A stretch of 64,000 nucleotides of DNA from Weeksella massiliensis (GTDB taxonomy: Bacteria; Bacteroidota; Bacteroidia; Flavobacteriales; Weeksellaceae), in contig CCMH01000004.1 of NCBI GenBank assembly GCA_000751595.1, positions 1 through 64,000 on the forward strand, written 5' to 3'. Position 1 is the stretch's first letter. Each line of letters opens with the position of its first letter. The notes beneath the pieces were generated by a model, which saw only the letters and a list, made by a program, of their open reading frames with translations, did not search any database and had not been told where the DNA came from. The translations under genes and the position numbers were made by a program. Below, piece by piece: positions 774-15,200 of the stretch.

Positions 774-976
774 CTGCAAGTAACATGGTATTGCCAAAAG
801 CGGGGGCTAAAGTACTAAATTGAAACTTTGTGCTTCTATACCGCCAAAAACGAATTTTATTCGTTTTTTATTTTTAAATTTAACTCACAAAATTCGTTTT
901 GGCTTGCCTCGGTACAAAATCGGAACTTATCGCTTCGATTTCCCCGCCTTCGGCAATACCCAAAACGTTATCTGCA
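774..976. other. attC-like site 1
   Basis: Imperfect palindrome of about 200 bases. The left side, TGCAAGTAACATGGTATTGCC then AAAAGCGGGG, is mirrored by the right side, CCCCGCCTTCGGCAATACC then AAAACGTTATCTGC. GTATTGCC pairs with GGCAATAC, and GCGGGG with CCCCGC. The R'' arm (776-784) belongs to cassette 1; the R' arm (GTTATCTGC, from 967) belongs to cassette 2. Small ORFs inside it are fortuitous. Confidence 0.75.
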
Positions 977-1024
977 AGCGTATTTGAACAAACCGCAAAC
1001 AAACACAAAATAAAAAATATTAAT

Positions 1025-1480
1025 ATGGAGTTAAAGAATGGTTTTAAGTTAATCGGAATTTCTACCCGAACAACAAATGAAAATAATAAATCTCAACAAG
1101 ACTTGGGAGAACTTTGGAATAAATTTTATTCTGAAGAAATTTTTGAAAAAATTCCAAATAAGATTTCAAATGAAATATTAGCAATCTACACTGATTATAA
1201 AAGTGACTACAGCGAGGACTACACCACAATTATCGGCGTTCCAGTTTCCACACTTAATGAAATTCCAACTGGTTTAATTGGTCAGGAATTTGAAAAAGAA
1301 AATTTTCAAAAATTTGTGGCAAAAGGTGAAATGCCGAATGCTGTTTTAAATACTTGGAAAGAGATTTGGAAAAACGACAAAGAATTAAAAAGAAAATATA
1401 CTTACGATTTTGAAGTTTATGGAGAAAAATCACAAAACGGTAAAAATTCAGAAGTGGAAATTTATGTCGCTACAAATTAA
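1025..1480 (+). CDS. GyrI-like / AraC-type effector-binding domain protein (cassette 2)
   Basis: A stand-alone small-molecule-binding domain of the GyrI-like / bacterial transcription activator effector-binding superfamily, 151 residues. Family marks are GFKLIGISTRT at the start, YTDYKSDYSEDYTTIIGVPV in the middle, then FVAKGEMPNAVLNTWKEIW and YDFEVYGE...SEVEIYVA at the end. There is no DNA-binding domain, so it would act as a stand-alone ligand-binding or sequestering protein (inference). I chose the ATG at 1025 because the longer frame from 899 runs through attC site 1. A close paralogue lies in cassette 6 (4555-5004). Confidence 0.8.
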   Translation: MELKNGFKLIGISTRTTNENNKSQQDLGELWNKFYSEEIFEKIPNKISNEILAIYTDYKSDYSEDYTTIIGVPVSTLNEIPTGLIGQEFEKENFQKFVAKGEMPNAVLNTWKEIWKNDKELKRKYTYDFEVYGEKSQNGKNSEVEIYVATN

Positions 1481-1491
1481 ATGAAAAGATC

Positions 1492-1693
1492 GCCTGCAGA
1501 TAACATAGTATTGGCAAAATGCGGGGTTGAATCGCAGGTAGAAAGATTTGTCACATTCAGCCGCCGCTGCTTTTCAATTCCACATTTTATTATAATTTAG
1601 TTCCATTGAAAAAGCATCGGCTCCGTTTGGTCGAAATTGAACTTCCGGTTCCATTTAGCCCGCACTTCGCCAATACTTTTTCCGTTATACGCA
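1492..1693. other. attC-like site 2
   Basis: Left arm CGCCTGCAGATAAC (1491-1504) is the reverse complement of the start of cassette 2 (GTTATCTGCAAGCG at 967), with one extra base. The centre AGTATTGGCAAAATGCGGGG is mirrored by CCCGCACTTCGCCAATACTT before the R' end GTTATACGC (1684). The open frame at 1606-1863 lies mostly within this palindrome and is not a gene. Confidence 0.75.
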
Positions 1694-4117: not shown

Positions 4118-4257
4118 CGACAGCTAACATGGTATTGCCAAAAGCGGGGCTGAAGTTCTTCGATTGAGCATTTGTGCAAAGTTCAACATTCGTTCTTCGA
4201 TTAAACTTTAGTACTAAAAATCCCCGCCTTCGGCAATACCCGAAACGTTATCGGCAA
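4118..4257. other. attC-like site 5
   Basis: Left arm GACAGCTAACATGGTATTGCC (4119 on) has the same core as site 1. The right side CCCCGCCTTCGGCAATACC, then GAAACGTTATCGGC, ends at R' (from 4247). The GACAGCTAAC arm is the reverse complement of the cassette 5 start GTTAGCTGTC. Confidence 0.8.
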
Positions 4258-4554: not shown

Positions 4555-5004
4555 ATGACAAACGGATTTAAAGTTATTGGAATTTCAACAAGAACAACAA
4601 ATAAGGAAAATAAATCGCAACAAGATTTGGGAAAACTTTGGGGAAAATTTCTTTCCGAAAATATTTTTGAAAAAATACCGAATAAAGTTTCTAACGAAAT
4701 TTTATCAATCTACACCGACTATAAAAGCGATTATACTGATGAATACACTACAATTATTGGAGTTCCTGTTTCAACACTTGACGAAATTCCTAGTGAAATG
4801 ATTGGACGAGAGTTTCCCGAAGAAAATTTTGAGAAATTTATCGCAAAAGGTGAAATGCCAAGTGCTGTTGTAAATAGTTGGATGGAAATTTGGCAAAAAG
4901 ATAAAGAACTGAACAGAAAATACACATACGATTTTGAGGTTTATGGAGAAAAATCTCAAAATGGAGAAAATTCAGAAGTTGAGATTTATATTGCGACAAA
5001 ATAA
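4555..5004 (+). CDS. GyrI-like / AraC-type effector-binding domain protein (cassette 6, gene 2)
   Basis: 149 residues, a close paralogue of the cassette 2 protein: NGFKVIGISTRTTN, YTDYKSDY and KYTYDFEVYGEKSQNG are shared nearly letter for letter. It is a stand-alone ligand-binding domain with no DNA-binding part. Its role is inferred to be ligand binding or sequestration. It lies 3 bases after the DUF3781 gene, and its stop is followed within 10 bases by the R'' arm of attC site 6. Two divergent copies in separate cassettes of one array suggest independent cassette capture or an old duplication. Confidence 0.8.
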   Translation: MTNGFKVIGISTRTTNKENKSQQDLGKLWGKFLSENIFEKIPNKVSNEILSIYTDYKSDYTDEYTTIIGVPVSTLDEIPSEMIGREFPEENFEKFIAKGEMPSAVVNSWMEIWQKDKELNRKYTYDFEVYGEKSQNGENSEVEIYIATK

Positions 5005-5012
5005 CCGAAGAA

Positions 5013-5029
5013 CGCCTGCCGATAACATG
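5013..5029. other. left fragment of attC-like site 6, cut by the IS110 element
   Basis: CGCCTGCCGATAACATG is the reverse-complement arm of the cassette 6 start (GTTATCGGCAAGCG at 4247). The site stops after ATG, where the insertion element begins. Its continuation (GGTTTGGCGCAATGGCGGG) is found after the element at 6264. Confidence 0.8.
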
Positions 5030-5052
5030 AACTGTGTAAACAAACAAGTTTT

Positions 5053-6030
5053 TTAAGCAGTTTTTTGTAAATAATTATCCTGGTAAAATTCCCTATTTTT
5101 TACCACTCCAAATACAATTTTAAGCAGCTTGTTGCACACCACAATTACGGCTGCTTTTTTATTCTTTCCTTTTTCCACTAATCGATCGAATAATGCCCTG
5201 CAATGATCGTTGGTTTTCTTCGCATTTAAGGCACACATATACAAGATATGTGGCAGTTGTTTGCCGCCTTGTTTGCATATTCGGATACGCCCTCGAATGC
5301 TACTTCCACTCCGATGTTCGGTGGGACTCAGCCCTGCGTAAGAGATCAATTGTTTATACGAATTCATGTCTTTAAAGCCTTGCGTGTAGATCAATAATTC
5401 GGCGGCAGCACGCTTACCAATTCCTTTTACACTAGATACCAATTCAAGCGTTTCTTGATCCCATTCTAAGAGTTTTTCTTGTAATTCTAATTCTAAATTT
5501 AGCTTTTCTTCTTGCAGTTTTTTGATGATTTTTTGAAAGTATTTTTCTATTCTTTTCGCATCAAACGGACATTTTTTCAAGCTGTGTATTTGGTTGCTAA
5601 ACTTGGTAATCTCTTTGGTTAAATCGTGAATCGCATTGTTCAACGAACGGCATTCAAAGTACGCCATATCAGGCATAGAGTAGGTTTCTGGATTTCGATC
5701 AACACCGTATTCATAAATGCGCTTGGCATCTTTTTTATCCGATTTATTACGTTCTAAATGCATTTGAATGTAACGTTTAATTTGCAAAGCATTCACCACG
5801 CTAAATCGACAACCTTTTTCTTGTAAAAAGAAAATCAAATTCAAATGATACACCCCCGTTGTTTCCATCACAAAATGTGTTGTAGTTCCTGCTTCTTTCA
5901 GCATTTTTCTGAAACCGGTAACGGTATTTGAGATTTGTAAATGTTGATGAATTCCTTCTTGATTAAGAAAATACAGATCTAAGGTTTCATTGGAAACATC
6001 GATGCCACAATACTTGGTTTTTTCTTCCAT
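5053..6030 (-). CDS. IS110-family transposase (DEDD recombinase)
   Basis: 325 residues, full length for the family. The N-terminal RuvC-like DEDD domain shows D11 (CGIDVSNETLDLYF), E56 (FVMETTGVYH), and D98 and D101 (RNKSDKKDAKRIYEYG). A coiled-coil stretch lies around residues 160-195. The C-terminal Tnp/transposase_20 domain has VKGIGKRAAAELL and LISYAGLSPTEHRSGSSIRG with the conserved serine (around 241-244). IS110 enzymes are guided by a bridge RNA made from the element's own end. The frame is intact, so the element may still be active. Confidence 0.92.
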   Translation of the reverse strand: MEEKTKYCGIDVSNETLDLYFLNQEGIHQHLQISNTVTGFRKMLKEAGTTTHFVMETTGVYHLNLIFFLQEKGCRFSVVNALQIKRYIQMHLERNKSDKKDAKRIYEYGVDRNPETYSMPDMAYFECRSLNNAIHDLTKEITKFSNQIHSLKKCPFDAKRIEKYFQKIIKKLQEEKLNLELELQEKLLEWDQETLELVSSVKGIGKRAAAELLIYTQGFKDMNSYKQLISYAGLSPTEHRSGSSIRGRIRICKQGGKQLPHILYMCALNAKKTNDHCRALFDRLVEKGKNKKAAVIVVCNKLLKIVFGVVKNREFYQDNYLQKTA

Positions 6031-6059
6031 TTTTTATACTTTTATTGTTGAAAAGAGAG

Positions 6060-6215
6060 AACTTTTCTTGCTATACAACCAACGATCCTAACACGAACTT
6101 TTTGTTCAACTAAACTGTACGGTTTTCAGCAAGAAATGAGCAGGGATAATCATGTTAATGAAGTTTAAAAACTTAATCGGTTTGTCTATCTTATTCTGCT
6201 CATTTTGTTCTTTAT
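6060..6215 (-). ncRNA. predicted bridge RNA of the IS110 element, with target and donor guide loops
   Basis: Read on the minus strand. Target loop: stem 6196-6204/6135-6143 (9 bp perfect) enclosing left guide CAAACCGAT (6184-6176), an inner hairpin (6161-6166/6169-6174) and right guide TAACATG (6157-6151). The restored target reads CAAACCCAT then GTTATC on this strand, so the left guide matches 8 of 9 and the right guide pairs with CATGTTA. Donor loop: ACAGTT (6118-6113) equals the element's right end (5035-5030), hairpin GAAC/GTTC (6095-6107), then TAGGAT (6090-6085), which pairs with the left end (6257-6262). The layout and strand polarity are those known for bridge RNAs. The exact ends are a guess. 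Confidence 0.7.
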
Positions 6216-6263
6216 TTTTATGATTTTGATACTATAAATTTAAGGAATTACAAACATAGGATG

Positions 6264-6449
6264 GGTTTGGCGCAATGGCGGGTTAGGGCTAAAATTAAAG
6301 TTTAGACTTTCTATTCCGCCAATACTGTGAGCATTGGCTTTTTTTTCATAATATTGCTACGGCTCACAGTATTGGCAAACGTTCGTGACAAATTGAACTT
6401 TCTGTTCTATTTATCTCGTACTATCGCTAAGCCGCGAACAGTTAGCCGT
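6264..6449. other. right part of attC-like site 6
   Basis: GGTTTGGCGCAATGGCGGG (6264 on) pairs imperfectly with CGCTAAGCCGCGAACAGTTA ending at R' GTTAGCCGT (from 6441). The middle has TATTCCGCCAATACTGTGAG mirrored by CTCACAGTATTGGC. The left arm lies at 5013-5029, on the other side of the insertion element. Confidence 0.7.
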
Positions 6450-13694: not shown

Positions 13695-15200
13695 CATGTC
13701 TATTGAAAATCAAAACCCAACATTCCAAATTTTTTAGAAAAACCAGCTCCTATAACGGACATTCAACAAACTAAAGAATACGATATCGTAATTATCGGAG
13801 CAGGTTCTCTTGGCGTTCCTTGTGCTTTGAAAGCTGCTGAATTAGGCGCAAAAGTGGCTATTTTACAAAAAGAAGCCAAGGCTTCTGCTTGCGGAAATTT
13901 CGGAGCCGGTATAGATTTGTCCAACAGCGATCCTGCAGATGTAGAAAGTTTAGTTTCTTTATTTTGGCGGCTTCTTCACATCGTCCGAAAAGAGAAGTTG
14001 TTGAAACTTGGGCGAAAAATTCTGGTGAAGCTGTAAAATGGACTATCGAAAAAGCAAAAGAAGCAGGTGCACAAGTCGCAGATTTAGGAACAGGTCCTCA
14101 TGCTGAACTGTTGCAACAACACGGATGGAATCTAAATTTTATCACTAGTTTTTTTGGTCCGAAACCCTACAATGCTGGTGAAGCTATGAAAGTGATGTGC
14201 AAATTGGCCGAACAAAAAGGGGTAGATATTTTCTACGAAACTCCGGCAGTACAATTGGTGCAAAACGATGGAACGGTAACTGGGGTTATCGGAAAAAATA
14301 AAGAGAATTATATTCAATTCAATGCTAAAAATGGAGTAGTAGTTGCCACCGGCGATTATGCTAATGATAAAAGAATGATTGATTTTTATATTCCTGATGA
14401 TACTAAGCTAGAATTGAGAAGAACTGGTAGAACCGGGGATGGTCATAAAATGATTGTTTGGGCAGGGGGAAAAAATAGAAAATATAGGACATACCAAAAT
14501 GTGTCATGATATGGATGCAGGTCCAACTTCTATGATGAATGCTCCTTTTTTGAGGGTGAAAACCAACGGTAAACGTTTTTGTGACGAAACCGTAGGAATG
14601 GAATTGATGAATTGTTACCTTTTAAGTCAAGAAGACAGCGGACATTATTGTCAGATTTTTGATGCAGATTATTTGGATAAAACAAAAGATTGGGGATTCG
14701 AATTTGATGATCAAGAATCGCTAAAAAATTGGATGCCAGAAGAAAATACCGAAAAAAAAGGTGTTATGACTGATTTAATTGATACTTACAAAGCTGATAC
14801 TTTAGAAGAATTGGCGCAAAAACTAAGAATTAAAGATACTGCTGCATTCATAGAAACTGTAAAAAAATATAATGAAATAGCTTCTAACGGAGAAGATACT
14901 GAATTTGGTGTCCCAACAAAGTATCTTTCTACAATTGATAAACCACCCTATTATGGTATTCATCGTCATATCCGTTTTACGGTCGGTTGTTCGGGTGTTG
15001 TAATTAATGGGAAACAACAAGTTTTAGACGAAAACGATCAACCGATTCTTGGTTTGTATGCAATCGGAAATTTAGCCGGAAACTTCTATGGCGGAACAGA
15101 TTATCCTTTGGATGTTTTCGGACTGAATTTAGGACACAATTATACCGCTGGTTATGTTGTAGCTAAGGAATTGACTCAGAACAATATCCAAAAACAATAA
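13695..15200 (+). pseudogene. FAD-dependent oxidoreductase (fumarate-reductase flavoprotein-like), three frameshifts
   Basis: The pieces form one flavoprotein of about 500 residues. An N-terminal leader is broken near 13725. It is followed by YDIVIIGAGSLGVPCALKAA (GxGxxG FAD-binding motif), a frame change near 13963, a middle part VVETWAKNSGEAVKW...GVVVATGDYAND, and another frame change in the AAAAAA run near 14472. The last 248-residue part has GHTKMCHDMDAGP and a C-terminal FAD contact GLYAIGNLAGNFYGG. Family members oxidise or reduce fumarate-like or steroid-like substrates; the substrate here is unknown. The next gene starts 5 bases later. Confidence 0.8.

What the first reader, a model, noticed from the sequence alone, without database searches (positions are those of the whole stretch)
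5027..6263. IS110 element whose bridge RNA is programmed against attC-like sites
Seen: the insertion sits exactly between GATAACATG and GGTTTGGCGC of an attC-like palindrome. The 230-base upstream end folds into two loops. In the first, 9-base CAAACCGAT and 7-base TAACATG match or pair with the two target halves; in the second, ACAGTT and TAGGAT match or pair with the two element ends. Strand polarity is correct for all four and each loop has an inner hairpin. Known: IS110 enzymes use bridge RNAs, and an attC-targeting subgroup exists in IS1111 elements of Proteobacteria. Inferred: this is an IS110-group, Bacteroidota counterpart that reads cassette arrays by RNA guide.
Basis: partly seen in the sequence, partly recalled or inferred. 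Interest (0 to 1): 0.92.

Follow-up and report, generated by a model that had tools for sequence, protein, structure and literature searches.

The report
RNA-guided jumping gene targeting cassette sites
A small bacterial jumping gene (IS110 type) appears to carry an RNA guide whose sequence directs it into the recombination sites that separate gene cassettes in Bacteroidota, a parallel in another phylum to elements known from Proteobacteria.

Summary
Window 5027-6263 is a complete IS110-group element: DEDD transposase 5053-6030(-), 233 nt non-coding upstream, 26 nt downstream. The upstream region folds into a target loop and a donor loop (z -3.2). Its structure covaries across relatives: 24 of 31 pairs with changes on both sides on a model-fitted alignment, 8 of 31 on a plain one. 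Guides follow targets: permutation p 0.0001 over 13 lineages, 26 copies. In own-genome loci chosen for their cassette arrays, the 10 best of 325,852 positions for the sister copy's guide were all flagged as cassette-site arms; for the window guide 8 of 12. DNA beside the window insertion, outside the guide footprint, fits the cassette-site profile (17.6 bits, 0 of 844 controls). Corrections: the 9-base guide match is 8 of 9, and the far arm of the window's palindrome is weak. The arrays look integron-like; in several relatives they lie near an IntI-like recombinase below the IntI cut-off, not found in the window's draft genome. RNA-guided attC targeting is published for IS1111 elements; this is an IS110-group Bacteroidota variant. 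Nothing was tested at the bench.

The parts
5027..6263 (-). IS110-group insertion sequence, 1237 bp counting the ATG at both junctions; core dinucleotide AT
   Evidence: own-genome copy C38 (96%) and the Vaginella massiliensis copy (95%) share these ends and have different flanks
5053..6030 (-). DEDD recombinase (transposase), 325 aa, intact
   Evidence: Pfam; IS621 8wt6 E 2.7e-30; ISCro4 9t56 E 8.6e-30
6062..6206 (-). predicted bridge RNA, target loop then donor loop
   Evidence: (165 bits; part of the training set)
6176..6184 (-). left-target guide, RNA CAAACCGAU; 8 of 9 match to CAAACCCAT
6151..6157 (-). right-target guide, RNA UAACAUG; pairs with CATGTTA (GTTA is target-only)
6113..6118 (-). 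left-donor guide, RNA ACAGUU, same as the right element end ACAGTT
   Evidence: in distant relatives G283 and G189 guide and end both read ACAGAT
6085..6090 (-). right-donor guide, RNA UAGGAU, pairs with the left element end ATCCTA
6251..6258 (-). TATGTTTG, a flavobacterial-type -7 box at the left end; with TTG of the right end it would form a promoter when the ends are joined
   Evidence: -7 consensus TAnnTTTG in PMC9723704 (passages)
5045..5047 (-). TTG, putative -33 element of the same junction promoter
5018..5026 (+). R'' side of the interrupted attC-like site (GCCGATAAC)
6264..6290 (+). L'' side of the interrupted attC-like site and following stem
   Evidence: 17.6 bits, 0 of 844 controls
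6415..6447 (+). presumed far arm (L'-R') of the interrupted site, weakly paired
   Evidence: (6 of 8 L-box positions)
776..975 (+). intact attC-like site
1496..1692 (+). intact attC-like site after a paralogue of the cassette gene that precedes the IS (uninterrupted comparison)
4120..4255 (+). intact attC-like site of the GGCAATACCAT type that matches the guide of own-genome copy C38

Best explanation
An IS110-group insertion sequence excises as a circle (inferred). Joining its ends puts a TTG 20 nt before TATGTTTG, which would drive the upstream non-coding region and the transposase (sequence shown, function inferred). The non-coding region makes a bridge RNA with two loops (structure and covariation shown, transcript inferred). 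The donor loop reads the two element ends. The target loop reads the R''-spacer-L'' half of attC-like sites: its right guide pairs with GTTA of the R'' box plus the core AT, its left guide with the L'' box (for example CAAACC). The recombinase then inserts the element between R'' and L'', in one orientation. The register between the two guides fits the short R''-L'' spacer and not the longer one of the other arm, so one arm of a near-palindrome is chosen. Lineages differ in the left guide (CAAACC, CAATAC, AAATAC) as attC-like sites do, so the element is retuned by guide drift (inferred).
For: Structure and covariation. Guide and target covary: all 26 parsed copies in 13 lineages, p 0.0001; 11 lineages without the two distant ones, p 0.0013 (first run with 5 rows left out and one mis-parsed, p 0.00015 and 0.0045). 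Distant relatives G283 and G189 (36-39% aa) carry guides TTGTCATT and CGGAATG and sit in TTGTCATTCCG. Scan of 325,852 positions in own-genome loci: for C38's guide the 10 positions scoring 12-13 of 13 are all flagged attC-like arms; for the window guide 8 of 12 scoring 11 or more; random positions are flagged 23 and 27 of 400. Thirteen own-genome left arms against shuffled guides: p 0.001 (window), 0.0004 (C38); right arms score 4.7 and 5.3 against 10.2 and 10.8. Flank outside the guide footprint is attC-like in 13 of 18 clade copies. Three insertions that are not attC-like still match their guides. In a second lineage (G410) five of six copies lie in one 27-kb stretch of array. Junction promoter: TATGTTTG with TTG at fixed spacing in 17 of 19 rows of the main set.
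Against: No transcript or transposition data. Beyond the core only GTTA supports the right guide. A scan with floating register was not specific: 179 of 336,888 positions scored at least as well as the window's real site. C38 does not match its own left target (score 3). The G002 guide against own-genome arms gave only p 0.057, and in their own loci the best-scoring positions of the G002, G138 and G290 guides were flagged in 2 of 3, 1 of 2 and 2 of 7. The lineages are related, so the permutation is not a test on independent events. The window's far arm is weak. No Rfam family other than a tRNA reached its threshold in the window.
Confidence: 0.88

Rival explanations
1. The recombinase recognises the folded attC-like hairpin as a structure; the RNA matches are secondary.
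For: 13 of 18 clade copies lie in attC-like sequence and 11 of 23 reconstructed sites have hairpins reached by at most 20 of 842 controls. Group IIC introns target attC (recalled; an integron link is stated in the abstract of PMC7923331, listing only).
Against: Three insertions not attC-like by profile still match the guide (G290d, L043, L044). 12 of 23 reconstructed sites, the window's included, do not reach that hairpin level. Guides covary with targets.
Confidence: 0.06
2. The element does not seek attC-like sites; it is carried along in cassettes moved by an integrase, and guide matches are inherited from one founding insertion.
For: Copies lie in or near cassette arrays.
Against: Copies within one genome (G290, G138, G410, the Ferruginibacter MAG) sit in differing sequences, between R'' and L'' where the site is attC-like, and lineages with different guides sit in sites of matching sequence.
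Confidence: 0.04
3. The target reading is right, but the palindromes are not integron attC sites; they belong to another cassette or repeat system, for example one run by a Xer-type recombinase.
For: No match over the IntI cut-off was reported in nine genomes (matches scored by stretch), and four whole proteins scored 192-209 bits against a cut-off of 265. In all four NF040815 scores highest. About 58 positions of the IntI model are bridged by about 16 residues. None was found in the window's draft genome. In G290 the nearest strict site is about 37 kb from the recombinase.
Against: Sites have an R''-L''-loop-L'-R' layout with asymmetric spacers and stand in the same orientation along the arrays. 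In G001, G002 and G138 the recombinase is divergent to and within 3 kb of strict sites. NF040815 is described by NCBI as tyrosine recombinase/integron integrase.
Confidence: 0.3

Closest known systems
IS1111-attC group (ISKpn4, ISPst6, ISPa25; ISPa21 by PMC11616780)
   Same: DEDD insertion sequences that insert at one end of attC sites; for ISKpn4 and ISPst6 a seekRNA co-purifies with the transposase and matches both strands of the target (PMC11187229, section 9 read)
   Different: IS1111 group: subterminal inverted repeats, non-coding region usually downstream, reversed guide order. Here: IS110 group, region upstream, no such repeats, Bacteroidota hosts
IS621 and ISCro4 (IS110 family, solved structures)
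   Same: Nearest solved relatives of the transposase; for IS621 a two-loop RNA with target and donor guides (PMC11208160, abstract and passages; ISCro4's RNA is recalled)
   Different: Different targets; the passages I read of PMC11208160 mention attC only in a reference title
ISEc21 (IS110 family)
   Same: Upstream seekRNA, same guide order, circle junction forms a promoter (PMC11187229, section 12 read)
   Different: Target is a linear stretch inside IS3-family transposase genes
Integron cassette arrays and CALINs
   Same: ORFs followed by attC-like palindromes in the same orientation
   Different: The recombinase near the arrays of relatives is below the IntI cut-off and lacks part of the IntI model; none found in the window's genome

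Membership tests
IS110 family | DEDD transposase with Transposase_20 domain | tested here: met
   IS621 and ISCro4 matches
IS110 group (not IS1111) | long non-coding region upstream of tnp | tested here: met
   233 nt upstream, 26 nt downstream
IS110 group (not IS1111) | no 11-13-bp near-perfect subterminal inverted repeats | tested here: met
   the pair nearest both ends (5064-5077 with 6241-6254) is 14 nt at 79%
IS110 group (not IS1111) | top-strand match lies 3' of the bottom-strand match in the RNA | tested here: met
   left guide (pairs with bottom strand) precedes right guide (pairs with top strand); rule from PMC11187229 section 12
Bridge RNA of IS110 elements | two loops with paired guides for target and donor, conserved structure | tested here: met
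Bridge RNA of IS110 elements | RNA is made and bound by the recombinase | not testable with these tools
   needs small-RNA sequencing or co-purification
IS1111-attC group | IS1111 layout with subterminal repeats and downstream region | tested here: not met
Integron attC site (array sites) | R''-L''/L'-R' near-palindrome with asymmetric spacer, in arrays of one orientation | tested here: met
   59 strict hits in 33 loci, a few of which look like chance by eye; shuffled DNA gave 3 in 632 kb, one strand
Integron attC site (the interrupted window site) | folds as such a palindrome | tested here: inconclusive
   left half fits by sequence, far arm weak
Integron | integron integrase IntI with its specific extra stretch | tested here: not met
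   no match over the TIGR02249 cut-off reported in nine genomes; four IntI-like proteins of relatives score 192-209 bits, cut-off 265

The most novel reading that the evidence does not exclude
Bacteroidota have integron-like cassette arrays run by a tyrosine recombinase without the IntI-specific stretch, and these arrays are parasitised by at least two lineages of IS110-group elements whose bridge-RNA guides have drifted to follow local site variants: RNA-guided attack on cassette sites arose separately from the IS1111-attC group.
Probability: 0.5. Interest if true: 0.76.

Novelty: new variant of a known kind. Interest (0 to 1): 0.62.

Why it matters
It suggests natural reprogramming of bridge RNAs inside one clade: recombinases 80-95% identical to the window's carry different guides that fit different versions of the same kind of site. 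That gives a ready set of guide-target pairs, with two versions of the core (AT and, in the Chitinophagaceae copies, GT at the right end), for testing mismatch and spacer tolerance. It also suggests that insertion into cassette sites, expected to fix or break cassettes, happens in Bacteroidota, and points to cassette arrays there that the IntI model does not pick up.

Tried and rejected
Rfam search of the whole window: only a tRNA reached its threshold; I did not check whether Rfam holds an IS110 bridge RNA family. First palindrome finders were loose and were replaced. A floating-register guide scan was not specific; the fixed-register scan was. The partner-arm test was uninformative (37 of 500 random positions reached 7 or 8 of 8). 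A right-arm pattern search in six genomes gave no more hits than its control; I had written the spacer one base short. One alignment used the wrong strand for one row (A1) and was not used further. Mis-parsed rows: G410_L131 (wrong left end; true flank), and G290a, where the inner of two left ends was taken, so that its guide was scored against its own DNA. One search left out five rows (G290a, G290d, L043, G410_L123, G410_L128) from the permutation; one search repeats it with all 26 rows and the right ends. Structure alignments used 11 of 20 parsed copies, leaving out near-identical ones and the two distant ones. Not parsed at all: the truncated G178 copy and the partial copies on own contigs C37, C14, C47 and on two G045 contigs. 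In one search the profile was built from all 59 strict hits, a few of which look like chance, and the six G410 rows were tried in three registers where the controls had one. Of the other genomes with an RNA-model match, G577 and G459 were looked at only by eye and G581 not studied. Tetu and Holmes was asked for and is not held; Post and Hall was not asked for. Literature searches for an IS110-group attC element or for such arrays. I saw titles and abstract starts of at most 20 papers each; none of those named one. PMC11616780 (abstract sentence and passages) says IS110 disrupted attC sites, but names ISPa21, which it places in the IS1111 group.

Full report
What is there. The element at 5027-6263 encodes, on the minus strand, a 325-aa DEDD recombinase (5053-6030) with both IS110 Pfam domains over cut-off; the two solved relatives found are IS621 (8wt6, E 2.7e-30) and ISCro4 (9t56, E 8.6e-30). 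Read in transposase direction, the junctions are CGCCAAACC[CAT]CCTATG and ACAGTT[CAT]GTTATCGG. An own-genome sister copy on contig C38 (96%) and the Vaginella massiliensis copy (95%) have the same ends and different flanks. C38 reduces the shared core to AT. The window's genome is of the same genus as V. massiliensis: handle G002 and record L036 agree in contig length and position.

RNA. The fold of 6060-6210 gives a target loop (stem AUGAGCAG/CUGCUCAU, inner hairpin AAGUU..AACUU) and a donor loop (stem UUCUUGCU/AGCAAGAA, inner hairpin GAAC..GUUC); z -3.23, 1 of 200 shuffles as good. I aligned 11 of 20 parsed copies with MAFFT alone: 91.8% of cells paired, 8 of 31 pairs with changes on both sides (shuffled 4.3 sd 1.4; 7 of 500 shuffles reach it), covariation score 0.206 against 0.123 sd 0.013. 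One measure, further pair types, was not raised (14 against 15.9). A model built from it matched 23 places in 26 loci, the window at 165 bits (a training sequence) and two distant relatives it was not trained on at 58.8 and 31.0 bits. On that fitted alignment (17 distinct rows) 24 of 31 pairs change on both sides, against 10.5 sd 1.9; sliding the partners by 1-3 columns gives 5-10. The fitted alignment leans towards the structure; the plain one does not.

Guides. In the RNA the order is CAAACCGAU (left target), UAACAUG (right target), ACAGUU (left donor), UAGGAU (right donor). Shuffling the region 5000 times reached the summed run length 176 times, and in the right order once. The left guide is 8 of 9 to the site, not 9 of 9. 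Donor guides covary with ends: in G283 and G189 both the end and the guide read ACAGAT, and in the Chitinophagaceae copies with a right end both read ACAGTTCG.

Other copies. From (9 of 320 family genomes with a relative at E <= 1e-60; 9 loci) I parsed 20 copies. Guides and sites: G290 guide AAATACTAT, sites AAATACTAT and AAATACCTT; Chryseobacterium-type (G138, G144) guide CAAACCCTT, sites AAAACCCTT; L044 guide CAATACCTT, site CAATACCTT; Ferruginibacter MAG guide CAAACCC with right guide CAACACG, sites CAAACC or TAAACC with GTGTTG; G283 and G189 guides ATTGTCATT and CGGAATG, sites TTGTCAT and CATTCCG. Nineteen rows were scored against 12,000 random positions. One (G290a) was taken at the wrong end. 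Of the other 18, 14 had sites reached by at most 5 random positions; the rest were G290d 16, G268 18, G002 22, C38 132. Those scores include core bases that the element itself may supply. Without core bases, and with all 26 copies (six from G410), permuting left targets among 13 lineages gave p 0.0001, and among the 11 lineages other than G283 and G189 p 0.0013. Lineages are related, so these are not independent events.

Prediction in the host. With the guide in fixed register against 325,852 positions of own-genome loci, C38's guide (CAATACGAT plus GTTA) scored 12-13 of 13 at ten positions, all flagged as attC-like arms; the window guide scored 11-12 at twelve positions, eight flagged; random positions were flagged 27 and 23 of 400. 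The window's real site would score 12 by the same count (done by hand). These loci were chosen because they hold pattern hits of the arrays. Guides of other genomes did less well in their own loci: at the best score G002 2 of 3, G138 1 of 2, G290 2 of 7 flagged. Thirteen own-genome left arms fit the window guide (p 0.001) and C38 guide (p 0.0004) better than shuffled guides; against the same arms the G290, G138, Ferruginibacter and G002 guides gave 0.003, 0.005, 0.023 and 0.057, an unrelated guide 0.43; right arms score far lower (4.7 against 10.2 for the window guide) because the L'-R' spacer is longer. So the register would pick one arm and one orientation.

Are the sites attC? Array sites read YAAC-ATNG-TATTGGC-AAAATGCGGGG ... 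CCCGCACTTCGCCAATAC-N6-CGTTA, with variation. A strict finder gave 3 hits in 632 kb of shuffled DNA (one strand). Observed: 16 credible sites on the plus strand of own contigs C4, C54, C12 and C23 (2 further hits look like chance), 13 on the minus strand of G002 860-900 kb, 10 on the minus strand of G410 110-139.5 kb, 3 in G001, 2 in G138 near 1840 kb, 6 on the minus strand scattered over 145 kb of G290, and a few single hits on other strands. In G002, G001 and G138 an IntI-like recombinase lies within 3 kb of strict sites and divergent to them; in G410 a NF040815-type recombinase lies about 7 kb from the last site found and points the same way; in G290 the nearest strict site is about 37 kb off. 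Four of these proteins score 192-209 bits with the IntI model (cut-off 265); their best family is NF040815, over its cut-off in 2 of the 4. No match over the IntI cut-off was reported in nine genomes, and the window's draft shows only weaker tyrosine recombinases, one of them a XerD. I therefore write attC-like, and integron-like. [quoted passage not shown] so integrons in the phylum as such are not new. A 2026 paper describes an attC-like fold downstream of an acquired gene in Riemerella (PMC13148043, passages; same family as the window's genus is recalled).

The insertion site. The hairpin of the reconstructed window site is not above control (score 18; 210 of 842), nor are those of C38, G002, G268, G138a and L040-L043; 11 of 23 scored sites reach a level met by at most 20 of 842 controls. 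But the 16 nt beyond the guide footprint score 17.6 bits with the array-site profile (control maximum 6.5), and 13 of 18 clade copies exceed every control; several of these 13 share the same flank. L038 is marginal (6 of 844); C38, G290d, L043 and L044 are not attC-like by this test. The last three still match their own left guides (scores 7, 6, 7), which favours guide sequence over hairpin recognition. C38 may have lost about four bases next to the insertion; this is unexplained. The paralogous cassette at 899-1480 ends in an uninterrupted site at 1502, a natural comparison.

A second lineage. The RNA model matched 5 of 395 Bacteroidota genomes, own included, with strict filters. In G410, a one-contig genome of another family, six copies of a 40%-identical element with other ends (CTTAAG, CACAGTTCTTTG) occur; five lie within 27 kb in the array. 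Its guide AACCGC finds AACCGC at four of six sites and AACCAC at two; by the attC profile 3 of 6 exceed every control (L131, L132, L134), and by hairpin 5 of 6 reach a level met by at most 20 of 842. The sixth, far away, does neither.

Promoter. Joining right and left ends gives TTG and TATGTTTG 20 nt apart (the script left out one core base and printed 19) in 17 of 19 rows of the main set; L039 and L040 have TATGTTCG. The six G410 rows show only TAAGTTTA, and one of them was mis-parsed. TAnnTTTG is the flavobacterial -7 consensus (PMC9723704, passages); the -33 element and its spacing are recalled. ISEc21 likewise forms a promoter at its circle junction (PMC11187229, section 12).

Relation to the known. 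RNA-guided targeting of attC by IS1111 elements is published (PMC11187229; sections 9, 12, 13 read, rest as abstract and passages). What appears new is the IS110-group layout, the host group, the drift of guides among related elements, and these arrays. In the listings named in Tried and rejected I saw no report of this; most subscription papers are not in that library. The effect on the host is inferred: an insertion between R'' and L'' should impair that site, as suggested for ISPa21 (PMC11616780, abstract sentence and passages).

Noticed in passing
L009:39-398 (own contig C47): About 360-bp derivative with both element ends and a full bridge RNA (91 bits) but no transposase: a possible non-autonomous copy with its own guide CAAACCGAG.
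   Followed up: partly
L116:9968-10060: One G290 copy has a doubled left end; the inner one abuts TCGTAAATACTATT, the DNA of its own left guide, as if the guide DNA itself had served as a target.
   Followed up: partly
L114:19241-19387 (-): Bridge-RNA remnant (69.9 bits) in genome G138; the protein search lists no transposase there.
   Followed up: no
L094, L096, L097, L098, L135: Tyrosine recombinases of five Bacteroidota genomes, close to integron integrases but without part of the IntI model, four of them beside or near cassette arrays: candidate integrase of an integron-like system.
   Followed up: partly
window 899-1480 and 4555-5004: Two paralogous cassette genes (78% DNA identity over 300 nt) in one array.
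   Followed up: no
window 13700-15200: A gene that looks by eye like a FAD-dependent enzyme lies in two overlapping reading frames next to the array, so it is probably broken.
   Followed up: no
L106 (C38 copy, left target): The C38 insertion site lacks about four bases expected between L'' and the core, and its guide fits other sites in the genome better than its own.
   Followed up: partly
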